Shown here: piece after piece, positions 46,114 to 54,667 of the stretch | How the letters are laid out: each line of letters begins with the position of its first letter | Position numbering within the stretch: the stretch's first letter is position 1 | Assembly: GCF_000213655.1 (NCBI RefSeq) | Contig: NC_015554.1 | Span: 2,232,001-2,296,000 of the forward strand | Direction of reading: 5' to 3' | Length of the DNA stretch: 64,000 nucleotides | Origin: Alteromonas naphthalenivorans | GTDB lineage: Bacteria; Pseudomonadota; Gammaproteobacteria; Enterobacterales; Alteromonadaceae | Made by a program: the position numbers and the translations under genes | Notes under the pieces: generated by a model | Told to the model about the DNA's origin: nothing | The model's input: the letters and a program-made list of their open reading frames with translations, nothing else | The model's database searches: none

Positions 46114-47250
46114 TTAACGGGCGCGCAGCTCACTTGGGGTCAAACCGGTTAATCGTTTTATCGTACGGCGAAAGTTAGGCAGGTCGGAAAAGGCCATTTG
46201 CGAGGCGCTTTGTTCGTTGTTTAGCTTTTTAAGCGCCAGCAATACGATGGCTTGTTGCCGCCGTGCTTCTTCGCTTAGCCCGCGGTACGTGTAGTTATGG
46301 TCGCTAAGCTTTCGTTTTAACGTTGCGGTACTGCACCCTAAATTTCTCGCTAAATCCGCTAAGCCTTTTTGAGGCTCTTGTAATGTCTGAATTCTTATAT
46401 AATCGAGTAAGCTCAAATTTGGTGTGTGTTGAGGTGAAGCCGGGGTTTGCTGATATGCCAAACTACGCTGTGCCTCGCCTTGGATATCACCCTGAACATC
46501 ACCTTGAATATCGCCTTGAACATTGCCTGCTTTCTCATCGGCAAACGGGAAAGCGGAAGTCATACAAGATTTGGGGAGGGTTATAGACATCAGGGGCGAA
46601 TGAAAAGCAACCCGAAGTCCTAGGTAAGTTTCGAAATCTTGAACGTTGCGTGGTCTTTCTGAATCTATTGTAAAACTCAAAGGTAAACGGGTGCCAGTCC
46701 ACTGCTTAAGTAAGGCAACCAGCATGGATAAATACAACTCGGCAATAAAGGGCCAAAGCTTATGAGCACCTCTTTTTTCACACCCCATAGTGTCTTGTAA
46801 CACCCAAATATATTTATCTTGTAGCGAAAAGCGCTTAAACGATACCAAGGGAATACTCCCCCACCGAATTGCTGTAAGCGCTTCAATGGCCTGCTCAAGG
46901 TTTTGGCTTCGTTTAATATTGGCTATATCTTCACGTAGCCATACCCCACCTAAACTTTTACCTATCAAAAAGCTAACGTCGTTACCCTTGCACTGCCCTC
47001 TTACATTTGAAAATAAGGCTATACATTGTTTGGCACTAATACGCGTATTTACCGTAAGGCTATCGTCAAAAATGCCCGTACCACGAAGTATTCTGTCTTT
47101 ACTTGCGCCGCGGGGAATGGCCACGTCCAGCACTGCATTTACAAGGTGATACGCTGGTATCACTTTGTCTGACTGAGTCACTGGTACTGGCGAAAGTGTT
47201 TTCACAGGCCTTTGAGTTTCCCCTGAAGTCACCACTGAGCTAGCTATCAC
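46114..47250 (-). CDS. AraC-family transcriptional regulator
   Basis: A 378-residue regulator. The N-terminal half (about 30-230) resembles the Arabinose_bd-type domain of the OruR/VirF-like AraC group (RILRGTGIFDDSL, SLGGVWLREDIANIKR, AIEALTAIRWGSIP); the C-terminal HTH (about 300-378) is clear: LADLARNLGCSTATLKRKLSDHNYTYRGL and SASQMAFSDLPNFRRTIKRLTGLTPSELR. The linker contains four copies of a QGD(I/V)-type tetrapeptide. The start is GTG, sharing one base with the stop of the GGDEF gene (TAGTG), so the two are translationally coupled. The target genes are unknown. Confidence 0.88.
   Translation of the reverse strand: MIASSVVTSGETQRPVKTLSPVPVTQSDKVIPAYHLVNAVLDVAIPRGASKDRILRGTGIFDDSLTVNTRISAKQCIALFSNVRGQCKGNDVSFLIGKSLGGVWLREDIANIKRSQNLEQAIEALTAIRWGSIPLVSFKRFSLQDKYIWVLQDTMGCEKRGAHKLWPFIAELYLSMLVALLKQWTGTRLPLSFTIDSERPRNVQDFETYLGLRVAFHSPLMSITLPKSCMTSAFPFADEKAGNVQGDIQGDVQGDIQGEAQRSLAYQQTPASPQHTPNLSLLDYIRIQTLQEPQKGLADLARNLGCSTATLKRKLSDHNYTYRGLSEEARRQQAIVLLALKKLNNEQSASQMAFSDLPNFRRTIKRLTGLTPSELRAR
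46476..46523 (-). repeat. Four 12-bp tandem repeats in the AraC-family gene
   Basis: Units of CRCCYTGRAYAT, in frame, coding on the minus strand for repeats of four residues (NVQGDIQGDVQGDIQGEAQ) between the ligand-binding and HTH domains. Gain or loss of a unit would change the linker length without breaking the frame. Confidence 0.85.
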
Positions 47251-48188
47251 TATGCAGCGTTCCTGCTGCCGTTTTTATTGTTTTGGGCGCTGTTGCTGTC
47301 TTCAAGCTGAAGCAGCAAATGCTGCAAAGTATCGGTGAGCGATCCTTGTTGAGTAAGTGGCGCAACCACTGCGCGCGCACTGGTATAAATGGCGGCCGTG
47401 TCTTCTTTATAGCGAAACGCTACATGGCTAATACTGGCTCTAACTTCTTTTACAATATCTTGGGCTTCGGCTTCATTCACATTAGGCAGCAATAGCGCAA
47501 ATCTATCGCCGGCATATCGACAAGCTAAATCTTGCTGTCTTAGGTTCATCACCACCAGTTGCGCGACTTCGTGCAAGTAGCGGTCGCCTTCGGCCTGCCC
47601 ATAGCGCTGATTAAAATAATAAAATTCATTAATATCAATAATGGCCACGTAGCCATCATTTCCCGATGCTTGCAATGCGGTAACCCGTGATTGCCAGTAA
47701 TCGCCTCGATACAACTGGGTAATAGGATCTATTTCTCGGTGGTCTCGGTAGTCCCATTCTCGGCGCCGAAGCTGTAAATTGATTGCACGCTGTTCTAAAT
47801 GCCATAGGTAAAGCGCCGCTGTCATGATAATCATGCCAATAGCGGCGGGTATCGACTCAATCATGCTGAGCCACAACGCGGAATCAGGGTAACGTAAAAA
47901 CTCATCAAGTAAGTCGAGTGTCATTGAGAATAAGAAAAATACTAAGCCCACAATTAACAGGCTAGTGACCTTACCTGGCGGCCGACTGGCCAATACGGCA
48001 ACAATCCATCCCAGAGTCAACAGTACTACACTGCCCTCACCCACGATGTCTAGGCCAGATATAATGGCGAGAGGCTTGCCGTTGCCAAAGGTCAGGCTCA
48101 AGGAGCTCGCCAGTGCAACAGTAGCAAAAGTAAAGAATAGCCAACCTTTGTGGTGACTAAACTGTGTGGCATTTCGTAAGGTAAACAT
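47250..48188 (-). CDS. Membrane GGDEF-domain protein with degenerate active site
   Basis: A 312-residue inner-membrane protein: about four N-terminal helices (residues 14-135), a short linker, and a GGDEF domain opening with DPITQLYRGDYWQSRV. The signature is Ala226-Gly-Asp228-Arg-Phe230 instead of GGDEF; the catalytic Glu is Arg, so GTP cyclisation is unlikely. The inhibitory site RxxD (RQQD) is intact at its normal distance, so the domain may bind c-di-GMP as a receptor. AIIDINEFYYFNQRYG keeps the first metal-binding Asp. The gene is coupled to the AraC gene, which suggests that the pair forms a signalling unit. Confidence 0.85.
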   Translation of the reverse strand: MFTLRNATQFSHHKGWLFFTFATVALASSLSLTFGNGKPLAIISGLDIVGEGSVVLLTLGWIVAVLASRPPGKVTSLLIVGLVFFLFSMTLDLLDEFLRYPDSALWLSMIESIPAAIGMIIMTAALYLWHLEQRAINLQLRRREWDYRDHREIDPITQLYRGDYWQSRVTALQASGNDGYVAIIDINEFYYFNQRYGQAEGDRYLHEVAQLVVMNLRQQDLACRYAGDRFALLLPNVNEAEAQDIVKEVRASISHVAFRYKEDTAAIYTSARAVVAPLTQQGSLTDTLQHLLLQLEDSNSAQNNKNGSRNAA

Positions 48189-48472: not shown

Positions 48473-48490
48473 CCGTCATGTAATTGTCAT
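48473..48490 (+). promoter_or_regulatory. PhoB box of the phytate locus
   Basis: Two direct heptamers, CCGTCAT and TTGTCAT, separated by GTAA; each differs from CTGTCAT by one base. This is the 7-4-7 arrangement of PhoB sites. Ten bases further, at 48501, TACCGT stands at the usual -10 distance for Pho promoters, whose box replaces the -35. The receptor ATG follows 88 bp after the box. Confidence 0.72.
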
Positions 48491-48577
48491 ATCCACTTTT
48501 TACCGTATTCGGCATCGAACATGGCTCATACACATTGATCACCACACTACTTTGCACACTTTACTCACGGATTAAGA

Positions 48578-51283
48578 ATGAAAATTAAAACCCGCTATTC
48601 TACATTACGCATTGCCTGTATTGCCGCCCTTGGCCTTTCACTGTCTCATCAAGCCTTAGCCGCTAATGGCGCAATTACGGGCACGCTTAACGACGCCGCA
48701 GAAGCGCGAGTGTACGTAGGCGCTAAAGTGAAACTTGTAGAGCTAAACTTAACCACAGAATCTCGACGCGACGGTAGCTTTCGCTTCTCGGGTGTACCTG
48801 CGGGTACCTATACCTTAGAAGTTTCTTATTTAGGTGAAGAAACGGTCACGCAGAAAGTCACAGTAAGCGATGATGACACGGTACGCCCGACTATTGAGCT
48901 GGGTGAAGGCGATGAACTTGAAGAATTACTCGTACTAGGGCAACGTAGTAGCCAAGCTAGCGCGATTAACCAACAGCGAGTATCTAACCGTATATCTAAT
49001 GTGGTATCTGCCGATGCCATTGGGCAATTCCCCGACCAAAATGCCGCAGAATCGTTGCAACGTTTACCAGGCTTGTCGATAGAGCGCGACCAAGGCGAAG
49101 GCCGCTTTGTGGGCATTCGTGGTATCGATCCAAATTTAAACAACGTGACCATTAATGGTTTAAACATTCCTTCACCAGAATCTGGTGTACGTTCGGTGGC
49201 ACTAGATGTTATCCCTTCAGAGCTAATTCAAACCCTTGAAGTGTCGAAGTCGGTTACCCCTGATATGGACGCCGACGCCATCGGCGGCTCAGTTGAAGTG
49301 ACCAGTGTTAGCGCGTTCGACAAACAACAAGATACGGCGAGCATTACCGTACAAGGTAGCCAAAATGACTTGCGTGACGAAGTCAGCCCTAAAGTATCTG
49401 GCACCATTACAAAAAAATTAACGCCTGATTGGGGTATTGCTGCTGCCTTGTCGTACTTTGACCGTGATTTCGGCTCTGATAACGTTGAAAGTAATGGCGA
49501 TGATGAGGTAGAACAACGCCAGTACACCATTACCCGCGAGCGTTTGGGTGGGGCAGTAAACCTTGACTACCGTCCAGACTTTAACAACCAGTATTATCTT
49601 CGCACTCTGTACAGTGAGTTTTCAGACGAAGAATACCGCTTAAGTAATACCTTCACCCTAGATGGTGAAGATTCAGAAATTGAGCGCGGCAGTAAAGACA
49701 GAAAAGAAACCCAAAGTATTTTTACGGTAGCCCTTGGGGGTGAACACCAGCTTCAAACATGGAAAGCTGACTGGCAACTTGGTTATGCTAAATCTGATGA
49801 AGATGAGCCAGACGCGCTTTACTATAATTTTGTGACTGAAAACGACAGCATCGATGCAAACCTAAGTACCATTCGCCCTGCTATTACACAAAACGCCGAC
49901 GCAATGGACTTATCAACGTACGAGCTTGATGAAATTTCGTTTGAAGATAACTATACCAAAGACACCGAAACCAGTTTTAAACTCGATTTGGCTCGCCCTG
50001 TAAATTTTGGCAGCTATTTGGGTGAATTAAAATTAGGCACAAAATACCGTAGCCGCGAAAAAGACCGCGACAGCAGCATATTCATTTACGATGGCGATTT
50101 TGACGGCATTAACCCTGCTGATTTCGGTGATGACTCACCAGAATATTCACTAGGTGATTTTGGTCCAGGCTTGTCTCGTTCTGGTATGCGTGATTATTTC
50201 AACACTAATCGTGCTGCACTAGAATTGGCCGAACTTGATTCAGAAATTGAATCTAATGGTGCTACCTACGTTAACGAAGAAGATATCTTTGCTGCTTACA
50301 TTATGGGTAGTGTTGATATTGATAAGCTTCATATTGTGGCTGGTGTACGCTACGAGCGCACTGATTTCAGTACCTCAGGCATGCGTGTTGAACTTATTGA
50401 AAATGAAGAAACTGATGTAGAAGACGTGGTAAACACGGTATGGGAAGCCGAGCGAGATTATGATCACTGGTTACCCAGCATCAACGCACGCTACGCGTTT
50501 TCAGATAAACTTCAACTTCGCGCCGCATATACGCAAACCATTTCGCGTCCTAAATTTGAAGATGTAGCAGCGTTTCAAATTATCGAAAGCAAAACCGAAG
50601 AAGATGACGGCGTTTTTGTTACCGAGCGTGAAGCAGAAGTTGGCAACCCAGAGCTTCAACCTTACGAAGCACAAAACCTTGATGTGTCTTTAGAGTATTA
50701 CCCTGGTGATATTGGCGTACTGTCAGCCGGTTATTTCTATAAAGATATTGATAACTTTGTAGTGTATGCCGATGTAGCAGGCACCGAAGGTTGGGAAGAC
50801 TACGATGAAGCCATTCAAGCCATTAACGGTGAAAGTGCCAGTTTACACGGGCTAGAATTGTCGTGGGTTAAAGCATTTAACAACGGCTTTATTATGTCGA
50901 CCAATGCCACCTTCACCGATTCAGACGCCACCACATTCTTAGACGGTGAAAAGTTTGAAACTCAACTGCCTAACCAGTCAGACACCATTGGAAACCTAAC
51001 CTTTGGTTACGAAGCCAACGACTTTAGCTTGCGCTTAGCCATGACCTATAAGAGTGAAAACTTTGAAGAAATTGACGGTGACATGCTGCGTTACGAAGAT
51101 GAACATGCCCAGCTAGATTTCACTGCAAAGTATTTCATTAACGATGATATGCAGGTGTATTTCAACGCAATCAATATCAATAACGAGCCATTTTATAACT
51201 ACTTCGATTCGCGCACGAATAATGCACAATTTGAAGAATATGGCCGTACGTTTGAGCTAGGTTTTACATGGCAAATGCGCTAA
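48578..51283 (+). CDS. TonB-dependent outer-membrane receptor
   Basis: A 901-residue receptor. Residues 1-29 are a signal peptide (cleavage after ALAA); about 30-110 a carboxypeptidase-regulatory-like (CarboxypepD_reg) domain (AITGTLNDA, GAKVKL, GSFRFSGVPAGTYTLEVSYLG); about 120-240 the plug (AINQQRVSNRISNVVSADAIGQFPD, ESLQRLPGLSIERDQGEGRFVGIRGIDPNLNNVTING); the rest a 22-strand barrel, rich in acidic residues. It is the FecA/CirA-like type common in Alteromonadaceae. The first gene of a probable operon with phosphatase and phytase, so its substrate is probably an inositol phosphate or its metal complex, by inference. Strongly acidic loops might prefer metal-bound ligand. Confidence 0.93.
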   Translation: MKIKTRYSTLRIACIAALGLSLSHQALAANGAITGTLNDAAEARVYVGAKVKLVELNLTTESRRDGSFRFSGVPAGTYTLEVSYLGEETVTQKVTVSDDDTVRPTIELGEGDELEELLVLGQRSSQASAINQQRVSNRISNVVSADAIGQFPDQNAAESLQRLPGLSIERDQGEGRFVGIRGIDPNLNNVTINGLNIPSPESGVRSVALDVIPSELIQTLEVSKSVTPDMDADAIGGSVEVTSVSAFDKQQDTASITVQGSQNDLRDEVSPKVSGTITKKLTPDWGIAAALSYFDRDFGSDNVESNGDDEVEQRQYTITRERLGGAVNLDYRPDFNNQYYLRTLYSEFSDEEYRLSNTFTLDGEDSEIERGSKDRKETQSIFTVALGGEHQLQTWKADWQLGYAKSDEDEPDALYYNFVTENDSIDANLSTIRPAITQNADAMDLSTYELDEISFEDNYTKDTETSFKLDLARPVNFGSYLGELKLGTKYRSREKDRDSSIFIYDGDFDGINPADFGDDSPEYSLGDFGPGLSRSGMRDYFNTNRAALELAELDSEIESNGATYVNEEDIFAAYIMGSVDIDKLHIVAGVRYERTDFSTSGMRVELIENEETDVEDVVNTVWEAERDYDHWLPSINARYAFSDKLQLRAAYTQTISRPKFEDVAAFQIIESKTEEDDGVFVTEREAEVGNPELQPYEAQNLDVSLEYYPGDIGVLSAGYFYKDIDNFVVYADVAGTEGWEDYDEAIQAINGESASLHGLELSWVKAFNNGFIMSTNATFTDSDATTFLDGEKFETQLPNQSDTIGNLTFGYEANDFSLRLAMTYKSENFEEIDGDMLRYEDEHAQLDFTAKYFINDDMQVYFNAININNEPFYNYFDSRTNNAQFEEYGRTFELGFTWQMR

Positions 51284-51376
51284 TTAAGCGCATTATTTAC
51301 CCCATATTTGTAAAACAAGATCTTACGTTTAAATATACGTCAAACCCTAAACGTCATACACAGGCGTTTAAAAAAT

Positions 51377-51397
51377 GGGCGCGCTACAAGCGCGCCC
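51377..51397 (+). terminator. Strong hairpin between the receptor and phosphatase genes
   Basis: A perfect 9-bp GC-rich stem GGGCGCGCT/AGCGCGCCC with a 3-nt ACA loop, 94 bp after the receptor stop and 18 bp before the phosphatase start. The T tract is poor (TTATTA), so it is more probably an attenuator or an mRNA-stabilising element that sets the receptor:enzyme ratio. Confidence 0.55.
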
Positions 51398-51414
51398 TTA
51401 TTAGAGATAAATTC

Positions 51415-52401
51415 ATGCGCGTACTACTGCTTCTTTTTGCCTTTTTGTCACTGACGTGCCAAGGGCAAATCACATCACACAATTACTACCAACAACACCA
51501 CATTAATAATCTTGAAGGTCAAGATAATGCTTTTCACTTTTTAGTGGTGGGCGACTGGGGCCGCAATGGCCATTTTTATCAACGGGATGTCGCTAAATGG
51601 ATGGACATTGCCAGCTACCAGCTTGATGCTGAATTCATCGCCACTACCGGCGATAATTTTTATGATAACGGGGTGGCGTCGGTTGAAGACCCTTACTGGC
51701 GTACTTCATTTGAAGACATTTACCATCAGCCCCACTTATTTGTTGATTGGCACCCCGTGCTGGGCAACCATGATTATCGCGGCAATTGGCAAGCCCAAAT
51801 TGACTACAGTAAAGTGAGTCGACGCTGGGATATGCCCGCGCAGTATTATAGTAAAACGGTACAATTAGAAGATGATACCACTGCGCTTATTCTATTTATC
51901 GACACTAACCCGCTAAACCCAGATTACGCCACTGAAGCGAAATACCAAGAAGCCTATTCTCAAGGCTCAAAAAAGCAATTAGTGTGGATAAACACCATGC
52001 TTTCAAACAGCAATGCTAAATGGAACATTGTGATTGGCCATCACCCACTGTATTCAAGTGGAAAACGTTATGGCACTACCAGCGCTATTAAAAATGTACT
52101 CGAGCCTATACTGCATCAGCACGGCGTAGACGCCTACATTGCTGGCCACGAACATGACTTGCAACATAACCAGTTACCCAATGACTCGCTGGTACATATT
52201 GTATCTGGTGGTGGTTCAGAAGTGCGCCCAGTAGGACATTACGACTTTACCCGTTTTGCTGAATCGACGGGGGGCTTTGTGGCGGTAAGTATGACTAATA
52301 ACGAACTTGGATTTACCTTTATTAACCACAAAGGGGCCGTGATTTATCGCCATAAAGTACAAAAGCTTAGCGCTGGAACAAAAGGAACTGGCAATGAATA
52401 A
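51415..52401 (+). CDS. Exported metallophosphatase, purple-acid-phosphatase type
   Basis: A 328-residue secreted phosphomonoesterase. The five metal-binding blocks of purple acid phosphatases are all present: VVGDWGRNG, ATTGDNFYDNG, LGNHDYRG, IGHHPLYS and AGHEHDLQ, giving an Fe/Zn or Fe/Mn di-metal centre. The order and spacing fit the ACP5-like low-molecular-weight class. ATG at 51415 begins a signal peptide (MRVLLLLFAFLSLTCQGQ), so this start is preferred over 51268, which would overlap the receptor gene. It probably removes phosphates from lower inositol phosphates left by the phytase. The stop overlaps the phytase ATG by 8 bases, so translation is coupled. Confidence 0.92.
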   Translation: MRVLLLLFAFLSLTCQGQITSHNYYQQHHINNLEGQDNAFHFLVVGDWGRNGHFYQRDVAKWMDIASYQLDAEFIATTGDNFYDNGVASVEDPYWRTSFEDIYHQPHLFVDWHPVLGNHDYRGNWQAQIDYSKVSRRWDMPAQYYSKTVQLEDDTTALILFIDTNPLNPDYATEAKYQEAYSQGSKKQLVWINTMLSNSNAKWNIVIGHHPLYSSGKRYGTTSAIKNVLEPILHQHGVDAYIAGHEHDLQHNQLPNDSLVHIVSGGGSEVRPVGHYDFTRFAESTGGFVAVSMTNNELGFTFINHKGAVIYRHKVQKLSAGTKGTGNE

Positions 52402-54667
52402 AGTAAAGAACAGCCTTACAACATTTGCCATAAAAACAACTCAATTCGCTTTTTGTTTGGCCGTTATGACAAGTACGAATGCAGTTGCATCAAGCGTAGC
52501 CGACCTAACGCTAACCAAAACTGGTTCTAGTGTTTCTACTGACTTTGAAACAACATACAAATTAAACGGTAAGACGATAAGCGTAACCATTAGTGAAACC
52601 AATGGTTTGACTGTTTCTGATGATAAAAATATGCTCGCGTCGCAAAAAGGCCACTTTGTTGCAGCTGGAAGTTACTTAGTTACTGATGAGTTAGAGCATA
52701 CTAACGGCACCTATATTCAAACCTTAGTGTTTGATATTAACAGCCAACAAGTACGTAGCTACACAGTAGGTACTGAAAATACGCCAAACCATACTATTCG
52801 CATTACCCAAACATCAGCAACTGAAGTAAAAGACTCGGAAGCCTTGTGTAGTGCTAATATCGACGGCAAATTACAGTTCGTTAATATCGATGCCTTAGGC
52901 ATGCTCACCCAGTACGTGGCGATACCCGATAAAAGCGATAGCACACTCACCGTTCATAATTTACGAACTCTGGCTATTGGCCCAGGCATAAAAAGTTGTG
53001 CGCTTGGGGTTAACTACAACGCTTCTGACATTTACGTTTCTGACTCAAAGTTTAATCGTTCAGCGGCACGTCACGCGGAACTTACCCTATATTTAGCCGA
53101 CGAGTACGCTGGCGTATGGGCCATGCCTGCAGATGAAGAAGCAGAGGTCGAGCGCACGCTTACCTTCAACCAAGCCGATATACCGGTTGAAGGTGTTGCT
53201 ACGCTTAATGGATTGGAGGCACGTAACTTGTTTTCCTCCAGCTCAGATACAGACAGCACAGTTACAAACAGCCCAGATACACAAAGCTCGCTTGCCGCGT
53301 GGGTAAGCCCAGAACACAACGGGCTTTGGCTGCACAATACCTGCGCCACAACCTACTTTGGTTTTGATAAAGACATAGCCCCAGAAGATATCGCGCTGTC
53401 GGTAAAAAGCGATACGGTTTTCGCCAACATCTACGATGACAACTCAGGCAGTACCTTCACCACCGACATCACCCACGCCATAAAAGCGCTGTACGCTTGC
53501 AAAACAAACCAAGCCTCTCTTAACAAGACACCCACACTTAGCGATACGCTTAACAAGACACCCATAGTAAAAAAAGAAAACCTCACTAGAGAGACACCCA
53601 TCACAAACGATGACGTCCCCACTAACAAGACACCCATGTTTTCTGCTATAGAACTGCAGCCTGTTTATGAAACCGATGTGGTGGAAAATTATGGTGATGC
53701 AGCCGATGATCCTGCTATTTGGGTAAACAAAAACAACCCATCTAAAAGTTTGGTGATTGGCACTAACAAAAAAGGCAGCCTAAATACCTACAACTTACAA
53801 GGTGAGTTAGTTGCCTCACACAAGGTAGGACGAGTAAACAACGTGGGCGTGGCATACAACTGGGCACCACAACACGATATCGCAGTGGCAAGTAACCGAA
53901 GCAGTAACAGCATGTCAGTCTTTTTCATCGATAAGAAAACTGGCGAGCTAACCTTCAACACTAACATCCCTACCCCGCTAACCGATATTTATGGGCTGTG
54001 TGCATTTTCAAACAATAATCACACCCAAGTATTAGTAAATAGTACTGATGGCCGGTACTTGCACTATCAGTTGAATACCTTAGAAGATGCTTCACGCGTT
54101 TCTGCCACCCTAATTCACGACTTTGAATTGCCGTCTCAGCCGGAAGGTTGCGTTGTAGACACCGATACACAAATTGCCTACTTGGGAGAAGAAGGTGCAG
54201 GCATATGGGCGTTGGATGTTTCTGAAGCCGAAACAATGCCTTCATCAACCCTTAGCAAAACGTTTAACAAGACACCCATGCTTATTGTTCCTATAAAATC
54301 CCCGGTTACCGCTGACATCGAAGGTTTATCGTTATTCGATGTAGACGGTGTACGCTATTTAGTTGCTTCTAGCCAAGGTAATAATCAGTACGCTGTTTAT
54401 GAAAGCAAGGCACCTTATAGTTTGGTGGGTATGATTAGCATTGGTGCAAATTATGATAAAGGCATTGATGGGGTGTCGGAAACCGATGGTCTTGAAACCT
54501 CCAACGTCAATCTAGGCGGCCCCTTTAATGGTGGGCTATTGGTGGTACAAGATGGAAGAAATGTGATGCCTAGCCAACGGCAAAACTTTAAGTTTGTAGC
54601 TGGGGACGACTTAGCTGATGCTATTCGCACTCACGTAAGCACACACATAAGCACTCACTCTAGGTAA
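52394..54667 (+). CDS. Beta-propeller phytase (3-phytase), dual-domain
   Basis: A 757-residue exported phytase. The signal peptide ends near residue 32 (NAVASS). About residues 415-750 form the six-bladed phytase propeller: ENYGDAADDPAIWVNKNNP, SLVIGTNKKGSLNTYNL, RVNNVGV, VASNRS.NSMSVFFID, IYGLCAF, QPEGCVVD, YLGEEGAGIW and DIEGLSLF, containing the Ca2+-binding Asp/Glu residues. The N-terminal 380 residues look like an incomplete second propeller, as in known dual-domain phytases. It hydrolyses myo-inositol hexakisphosphate with Ca2+. The linker and one loop carry repeated NKTP units. The ATG overlaps the phosphatase stop, AAGGA lies before it. It is the last gene of the locus, followed by a hairpin. 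Confidence 0.92.
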   Translation: MNKVKNSLTTFAIKTTQFAFCLAVMTSTNAVASSVADLTLTKTGSSVSTDFETTYKLNGKTISVTISETNGLTVSDDKNMLASQKGHFVAAGSYLVTDELEHTNGTYIQTLVFDINSQQVRSYTVGTENTPNHTIRITQTSATEVKDSEALCSANIDGKLQFVNIDALGMLTQYVAIPDKSDSTLTVHNLRTLAIGPGIKSCALGVNYNASDIYVSDSKFNRSAARHAELTLYLADEYAGVWAMPADEEAEVERTLTFNQADIPVEGVATLNGLEARNLFSSSSDTDSTVTNSPDTQSSLAAWVSPEHNGLWLHNTCATTYFGFDKDIAPEDIALSVKSDTVFANIYDDNSGSTFTTDITHAIKALYACKTNQASLNKTPTLSDTLNKTPIVKKENLTRETPITNDDVPTNKTPMFSAIELQPVYETDVVENYGDAADDPAIWVNKNNPSKSLVIGTNKKGSLNTYNLQGELVASHKVGRVNNVGVAYNWAPQHDIAVASNRSSNSMSVFFIDKKTGELTFNTNIPTPLTDIYGLCAFSNNNHTQVLVNSTDGRYLHYQLNTLEDASRVSATLIHDFELPSQPEGCVVDTDTQIAYLGEEGAGIWALDVSEAETMPSSTLSKTFNKTPMLIVPIKSPVTADIEGLSLFDVDGVRYLVASSQGNNQYAVYESKAPYSLVGMISIGANYDKGIDGVSETDGLETSNVNLGGPFNGGLLVVQDGRNVMPSQRQNFKFVAGDDLADAIRTHVSTHISTHSR
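53522..54278 (+). repeat. Dispersed 13-bp in-frame repeats in the phytase gene
   Basis: AACAAGACACCCA occurs exactly at 53522, 53552, 53624 and 54266, with a degenerate copy near 53591. Each is in the same frame and encodes NKTP, mostly followed by Met or Ile. Three lie in the interdomain linker, one in a propeller loop about 630 bp away. I found no exact copy elsewhere in the window. Confidence 0.85.

What the first reader, a model, noticed from the sequence alone, without database searches (positions are those of the whole stretch)
48473..54667. A probable PhoB-controlled phytate utilisation operon
A TonB receptor, a purple-acid-type phosphatase and a dual-domain beta-propeller phytase are in tandem; the two enzymes overlap by 8 bases. 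An 18-bp PhoB-like site (heptamer, 4 bp, heptamer) lies 88 bp before the receptor, with a -10-like TACCGT 10 bp after it. Seen: genes, overlaps, site. Known: phytases and receptors are neighbours in some marine bacteria. Inferred: the receptor imports an inositol phosphate, the phosphatase finishes dephosphorylation and the operon answers phosphate starvation.
Basis: partly seen in the sequence, partly recalled or inferred. Interest (0 to 1): 0.72.

Follow-up and report, generated by a model that had tools for sequence, protein, structure and literature searches.

The report
Phosphate-starvation operon for eating phytate
A marine bacterium carries a three-gene set (an outer-membrane receptor and two enzymes) that probably switches on when phosphate runs out and strips phosphate from phytate; the switch site is conserved in nearly all the related loci examined, so it looks real, though similar receptor-phytase pairs were already known.

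Summary
Observation confirmed: TonB receptor (48578-51283), purple acid phosphatase (PAP, start more likely 51415, to 52401) and dual-domain propeller phytase (52394-54667) lie in tandem; the enzymes overlap by 8 bases; a Pho-box-like site lies at 48473-48490, 10 nt before TACCGT. Alone the site is weak evidence. Comparison makes the case: box-N10-TANNNT precedes the receptor in 40 of 43 genus loci, window included, against 0 of 21,500 Markov controls (pattern fixed after a first look), and occurs five times in the genome against none for the reversed pattern. PhoB and PhoR are encoded. Receptor and phytase: both in 45, neither in 13, receptor alone 1, phytase alone 0 of 59 genomes. New here: the PAP seems old and repeatedly lost, with in-frame deletion scars that spare the phytase; a stem-loop, mostly without a U-tract, follows the receptor gene (38 of 44). 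Import of inositol phosphate and the PAP's role are inferred. Receptor-phytase pairs, one induced by phosphate depletion, are published: a new variant of a known kind.

The parts
48473..48490 (+). Pho-box-like PhoB site CCGTCAT-GTAA-TTGTCAT
   Evidence: Seen in sequence; same layout in 40 of 43 genus loci, window included; 5 genome sites against 0 reversed control
48501..48506 (+). -10-like TACCGT, 10 nt after the box (TANNNT at this spacing in 40 of 43 loci)
48578..51283 (+). TonB-dependent outer-membrane receptor (TIGR01782 subfamily), 901 aa
   Evidence: ortholog in 46 of 59 genus genomes, co-occurring with the phytase
51377..51397 (+). Stem-loop GGGCGCGCTACAAGCGCGCCC between receptor and PAP genes, followed by TTATTAGAGA (no U-tract on this strand)
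   Evidence: flags the same stem as terminator-like on the - strand
51415..52401 (+). Low-molecular-weight purple acid phosphatase (PAP) with a signal-like N terminus, 328 aa from the ATG at 51415
   Evidence: GDWG, GDNFY, GNHD, VIGHH, GHEH present
52394..54667 (+). Dual-domain beta-propeller phytase, 757 aa: signal-like N terminus, degenerate N domain (strands 51-358), low-confidence linker (372-414), catalytic C domain (about 415-749)
53522..53636 (+). Linker stretch with four AGACACCCA repeats (NKTP/RETP peptides); a fifth copy lies in the C domain at about 54270

Best explanation
A PhoB-activated operon for scavenging inositol phosphates. When phosphate is low, PhoR phosphorylates PhoB, which binds the direct repeat at 48473-48490 and recruits RNA polymerase to a weak -10 (TACCGT). 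One transcript carries receptor, PAP and phytase; a stem-loop after the receptor gene lets the cell make more receptor than enzyme, by protecting the upstream mRNA or by partial termination. The phytase, whose start codon lies in the end of the PAP gene, removes phosphates from phytate down to about InsP3; the PAP removes further phosphates; the receptor takes phytate or a partly dephosphorylated, metal-bound product through the outer membrane. Shown here by computation: gene identities, catalytic motifs, conserved box and spacing, co-inheritance, stem-loop, gene overlap. Inferred: PhoB binding, induction, one transcript, function of the stem-loop, receptor substrate, cell location and order of the enzymes.
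For: Box-N10-TANNNT in 40 of 43 genus loci, 0 of 21,500 Markov-1 sequences (box without the -10: 40 of 21,500), while flanks differ between clades and the distance to the start codon runs from 47 to 162 nt; six loci (L057, L058, L059, L062, L064, L074) add a third heptamer 11 bp upstream. Five genome sites against 0 control: this operon, a Na+/Pi cotransporter, a PAP2 phosphatase followed by a glycosyltransferase, two without an evident phosphorus gene. PhoB 365.8 bits against 296.2, PhoR beside it. Receptor and phytase: both 45, neither 13, receptor only 1, phytase only 0 of 59. Receptor immediately upstream, PAP between or not, in 44 of 45 phytase loci; in the 45th the contig ends. Phytase motifs YG, EGCVVD, DIEG, DG and PAP motifs GDWG, GNHD, VIGHH, GHEH present, as listed for proven phytases in PMC12406696 (introduction with Table 1 read), which also states that propeller phytases give Ins(2,4,6)P3. 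PMC8115612 Table 1 lists phytase Fjoh_1367 and receptor Fjoh_1368 as raised under Pi depletion (passages).
Against: No expression, binding or growth data for this organism. The box alone is not special in the genome. The strict pattern was written after the first alignments, so 40 of 43 is not a blind test, and the loci are related, not independent. Three loci miss it (L071, L086, L098), with near variants at the same spacing. Outside the genus the strict layout is in only 5 of 18 loci; 8 of 14 receptor upstreams there hold a best site that at most 2 of 200 shuffles reach, 6 do not (in L119 the start I took lay upstream of its strict box). Two of the five genome sites have no evident phosphorus gene. 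The stem-loop could be a terminator splitting the operon. Nothing in the receptor sequence was shown to bind inositol phosphate.
Confidence: 0.8

Rival explanations
1. The receptor serves metal acquisition: it takes up iron or calcium held by phytate, or another ligand, and the enzymes free the metal; phosphate is a by-product.
For: TonB receptors classically import ferric chelates (general knowledge); the only solved relatives found by sequence are two entries named colicin I receptor; PMC3400609 notes that phytic acid also chelates Fe (passage seen).
Against: The conserved upstream site is Pho-box-like in 40 of 43 loci; the two partner genes are phosphatases; a comparable receptor-phytase pair responds to Pi depletion (PMC8115612). 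No Fur site was searched for.
Confidence: 0.1
2. Two transcription units: the stem-loop after the receptor gene ends most transcripts, and PAP-phytase has its own promoter or only read-through.
For: A stem stronger than at least 95 of 100 shuffles in 38 of 44 loci; gaps of roughly 40 to 144 nt between receptor and PAP (the larger values printed there for L066, L068, L077 and L088 are inflated, as their PAPs start earlier).
Against: Of the 38 stems 3 have 5 or more T in the next 8 bases (4 of all 44); the window's stem on the + strand is followed by TTATTAGA. The promoter-like count in the region is below its shuffles (10 against a mean of 12.5); no other promoter search for PAP-phytase was made. 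Gene order is kept in 44 of 45 loci.
Confidence: 0.15
3. The PAP is a hydrolase for other phosphomonoesters or nucleotides and is only parked in the operon.
For: TRAP-type PAPs act on many esters (general knowledge); PAP is missing in 15 and truncated in 2 of 44 genus rows that keep the receptor.
Against: In the loci read it stays in the same slot next to the phytase, also in another genus of the family (L118); in the window it overlaps the phytase by 8 nt. PMC12406696 reports a marine PAP-type sequence active on phytate (section 20 read).
Confidence: 0.2

Closest known systems
Flavobacterium johnsoniae phytase Fjoh_1367 plus TonB receptor Fjoh_1368 (PMC8115612; passages seen)
   Same: PF02333 phytase beside a TonB receptor, both raised under phosphate depletion
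   Different: Bacteroidota; no PAP and no Pho-box footprint in the passages seen
Citromicrobium bathyomarinum JL354 receptor-phytase pair (PMC3400609; passages seen)
   Same: TonB receptor adjacent to a phytase; authors propose phytic acid as substrate
   Different: Regulation and PAP not treated in the passages seen
AQX clade of propeller phytases (AQX17444 of Pseudomonas sp. FB15, with AAN55555) in PMC12406696 Table 1
   Same: Same four motifs; in AQX17444 they start at residue 418, which suggests a dual-domain protein too (my inference)
   Different: Not compared residue by residue here; the window's protein has a repeat-built linker
Purple acid phytase XP clade in PMC12406696 Table 1 (GDWG, GNHD, VVGHH, GHDH)
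   Same: The window's PAP reads GDWG, GNHD, VIGHH, GHEH, nearer to this clade than to the ACR clade (GDLG, GNHE, VAGWH, GHVH)
   Different: Sequences not compared directly; phytase activity of the window's PAP unknown

Membership tests
Beta-propeller phytase (PF02333) | Profile match above cut-off | tested here: met
Beta-propeller phytase (PF02333) | Motifs YG, EGxxxD, DxEG, DG | tested here: met
   All four in the window's C domain; motif list from PMC12406696
Beta-propeller phytase (PF02333) | Phytate hydrolysis | not testable with these tools
   Needs an assay
Dual-domain propeller phytase | Second, incomplete phytase-like domain at the N terminus | tested here: met
   hhalign 99.5%, E 3.8e-23; strands 51-358 in the model
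Purple acid phosphatase (TRAP type) | Metal-ligand motifs incl. the tyrosine of GDNxY | tested here: met
   GDWG, GDNFY, GNHD, VIGHH, GHEH; alignment to 1ute; the role of the tyrosine is recalled
Purple acid phytase | Activity on InsP6 | not testable with these tools
   Only motifs agree with a listed phytase clade
TonB-dependent receptor TIGR01782 | Score above curated cut-off | tested here: met
   561.9 against 310
Inositol-phosphate receptor | Uptake of an inositol phosphate | not testable with these tools
   Only linkage and co-occurrence
PhoB regulon | Pho box with 11-bp repeat about 10 bp before a -10 | tested here: met
   the Pho-box consensus itself is recalled
PhoB regulon | PhoB and PhoR in the genome | tested here: met
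PhoB regulon | phoB-dependent induction | not testable with these tools
   No expression data

The most novel reading that the evidence does not exclude
A two-phytase relay under one PhoB promoter: two unrelated phytases with complementary end points (propeller phytase stopping at InsP3, purple acid enzyme going on to InsP1 or inositol) are coupled by overlapping genes and fed or drained by a dedicated inositol-phosphate receptor. Lineages that deleted the PAP in frame would then be natural InsP3 leakers, and PAP keepers could exploit their waste.
Probability: 0.3. Interest if true: 0.6.

Novelty: new variant of a known kind. Interest (0 to 1): 0.42.

Why it matters
Inositol phosphates are called an overlooked phosphorus source in the sea (title of PMC12406696). 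This gives a genus-wide, testable regulatory and genetic unit for their use, with close relatives that have and lack the second enzyme, and a candidate receptor whose substrate can be tested directly.

Tried and rejected
Lone-motif statistics for the Pho box did not separate the site from background; rejected as evidence by itself. The ATG at 51268 for the phosphatase was rejected because it lies in the receptor gene and close homologues start at the counterpart of 51415. First stem scan used 110 nt, which cut off the window's own stem, and Watson-Crick pairs only: 23 of 44 beat all 60 shuffles; repeated with 150 nt and G-U pairs (38 of 44 beat at least 95 of 100). In one search the 150 nt can reach into the next gene: in L060, L061 and L065 the stem lies inside the PAP gene (gaps of 40-41 nt), and the shuffles keep single-base content only. 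PF01797 searched in the genome found nothing; of two transposase-like proteins one reached 20.9 bits, below the cut-off of 23, the other had no Pfam match, so a protein query was used.

Literature: searches (3 papers; 0; 20 of 39 listed; 5; 3; 0; 15 of 34 listed; 15 of 28 listed; 1) showed no title or abstract start that I recognised as describing a receptor-PAP-phytase operon or a Pho box before an Alteromonas phytase; the library holds open-licence PMC papers only, and four papers were opened (PMC6972757, PMC8115612, PMC12406696, PMC3400609), none of them whole. Lim et al. 2007 ISME J was seen only as a reference-list entry.

Rows dropped: from the box count L054 (no receptor on the contig), L069 (receptor 5' part unmatched) and L091 (start uncertain); from the tree and from the stem count L054, L069 and L099 (L099 is a sub-cut-off PF02333 hit with none of the genes). 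Of 18 non-genus genomes with PF02333, 17 were fetched (not G193, a 43-aa frame), giving 18 loci (two from G169).
Full report
What is there. The window lies at 2232001-2296000 of a 4,972,148-base single-contig genome. I recall that 4,972,148 is the genome length of Alteromonas naphthalenivorans SN2; no call says so.

The regulatory site. As a lone motif it is unremarkable: 16 places in the genome within one mismatch, and within two mismatches 146 against 128 for the reversed pattern. In relatives, 40 of 45 best matches to a recalled Pho-box matrix within 350 nt upstream of the receptor exceed the 99th percentile of single-base shuffles (11.7 bits); the five below are L063, L069, L090, L091, L098. 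Anchoring on the site shows a constant distance to a TANNNT -10 while flanks differ between clades. The strict layout NNGTCAY-N4-NNGTCAY-N10-TANNNT is in 40 of 43 loci, the window's included, and in 0 of 21,500 Markov-1 sequences; the box without the -10 arises in 40 of 21,500. The pattern was fixed after looking at the first alignment, so this is description, not a blind test, and the loci share ancestry. The three misses hold near variants at the same spacing: L071 and L086 (GTTTCAC-AGAA-CTGTCAT) and L098 (CGATCAT-CAAC-GTGTCAC), the last from the genome where the receptor but no phytase was found. In L057, L058, L059, L062, L064 and L074 a third heptamer precedes at 11-bp spacing. Genome-wide the layout occurs five times against none for the reversed pattern: before this operon, before a Na+/Pi cotransporter, before a PAP2 phosphatase followed by a glycosyltransferase, and at two places without an evident phosphorus gene (482767 and 3075801). 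PhoB (365.8 bits, cut-off 296.2) and PhoR are encoded side by side.

Distribution. Of 59 genus genomes, 45 hold PF02333 and 46 hold the receptor at E 1e-250 or better (a threshold I chose); both 45, neither 13, receptor only 1 (G021), phytase only 0. In 44 of 45 phytase loci the receptor lies immediately upstream, with or without PAP between; in the 45th (L054, G005) the contig ends, and that genome's receptor lies beside a PAP fragment on another contig. In the order, 21 of 197 genomes have PF02333, 3 of them in the genus; of 18 non-genus loci fetched, 14 have a receptor match upstream (one weak, L126), 1 has PAP (L118), and 5 show the strict box layout (L116, L117, L118, L119, L126; in L117, without a receptor match, it lies before the phytase). 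Of 14 receptor upstreams scored with the matrix, 8 have a best site reached by at most 2 of 200 shuffles. So the receptor-phytase link is wide; the strict box is seen mainly in this genus and less often outside it.

The PAP comes and goes. A PAP match is in 18 of 60 genomes, the window's own included; one of the 18 is a partial 35% match outside the genus (G057). On a quick receptor tree of 46 rows (27 PAP, 15 none, 2 truncated in the genus; L118 PAP and L116 none as outgroup) PAP state needs 6 changes against a shuffled mean of 15.3. PAP is in L118 and in all 12 rows of one of the two first branches of the genus, so loss is the simpler reading; the tree has SH-aLRT support only. Two losses in the window's own clade still show how: in L092 and L094 an in-frame deletion leaves 72 codons that keep the ATGAATAA junction with the phytase; in L096 the PAP start region and signal-like stretch run in frame into the phytase. 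Both spare the phytase's reading, as expected if PAP and phytase translation are linked. That is inference from three genomes.

The stem-loop. Within 150 nt after the receptor stop, 38 of 44 loci have a stem stronger than at least 95 of 100 shuffles. In L060, L061 and L065 it lies within the PAP gene rather than before it. Letters differ by clade (GGGCGCGC, AGGCGGGC, GGGTGCGC, CGCAAGC and others), so a stem rather than a sequence is kept. Of the 38, 3 have a T-rich tail. I read it as an mRNA-protecting or partly terminating element that favours receptor over enzymes; no test was possible.

Mechanism and literature. PMC12406696 (abstract, introduction with Table 1, and sections 17, 18 and 20 read) states that propeller phytases give Ins(2,4,6)P3 and acid phytases Ins(2)P, and that a marine sequence of the PAP XP clade is active on phytate; the window's PAP is nearer to that clade's motif pattern. 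PMC3400609 (passages) proposes phytic acid as substrate of a TonB receptor next to a phytase in Citromicrobium. PMC8115612 (passages) shows both members of such a pair raised under phosphate depletion in Flavobacterium. PMC6972757 (passages) mentions upregulation of a phytase gene of Alteromonas MIT1002 in co-culture with Prochlorococcus.

A side discovery. The phytase linker holds AGACACCCA repeats in frame. RGACACCCAY occurs 106 times in the genome against 31 for the reversed pattern; of the 100 places listed, 70 lie within 20 kb of one of five full-length related transposase-like genes (four of the five have such a cluster, the one at 2627 kb has none), and on 1-kb clusters random placement of five genes did as well in 0 of 20,000 trials. 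The phytase lies about 20 kb from one of them. A near-identical phytase (P0002, 96%) lacks most of the array. This looks like a REP-like element that spreads around its transposase and into a coding linker; it deserves its own study.

Noticed in passing
window 53522-53636 and about 54270; genome clusters at 467-479 kb, 1185-1205 kb, 2285-2325 kb, 2856-2868 kb: A REP-like repeat (RGACACCCAY) counts 106 against 31 for the reversed pattern, forms arrays with about 33-bp spacing in places and in both directions, clusters around four of five related transposase-like genes (70 of 100 listed places within 20 kb), and sits in frame in the phytase linker and in a carboxylase-like ORF (the carboxylase name is my reading). 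Copy number in the phytase linker varies between near-identical proteins.
   Followed up: partly
L169:8619-9608 and L168:6168-7214: Transposase-like proteins with a PYYHCVSRCVR motif near these arrays; one touches PF01797 at 20.9 bits, below the cut-off of 23, the other has no Pfam match.
   Followed up: partly
L096 (contig length and locus L033 point to Alteromonas sp. 1_MG-2023): The PAP's signal-like start now leads the phytase after loss of the PAP body: a signal-peptide exchange by deletion.
   Followed up: yes
phytases of L056, L062, L067, L069, L070, L071, L073, L075, L081, L083, L086, L087, L097: A lipobox-like pattern in the signal region by a simple regular expression (13 phytases), so in these genomes the phytase may be a lipoprotein, while the window's phytase was not flagged; cell location may differ between clades.
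   Followed up: no
G000:C1:1705126 (L001): A zero-mismatch YTGTCATN4YTGTCAT site 48 nt before another TonB-receptor-like gene (Plug domain): a second candidate PhoB-controlled receptor.
   Followed up: no
window 46114-48188 (-): A GGDEF-like membrane protein and an AraC-like regulator lie divergently upstream and are kept beside the operon in L031-L033 (names are my reading of the sequence).
   Followed up: no
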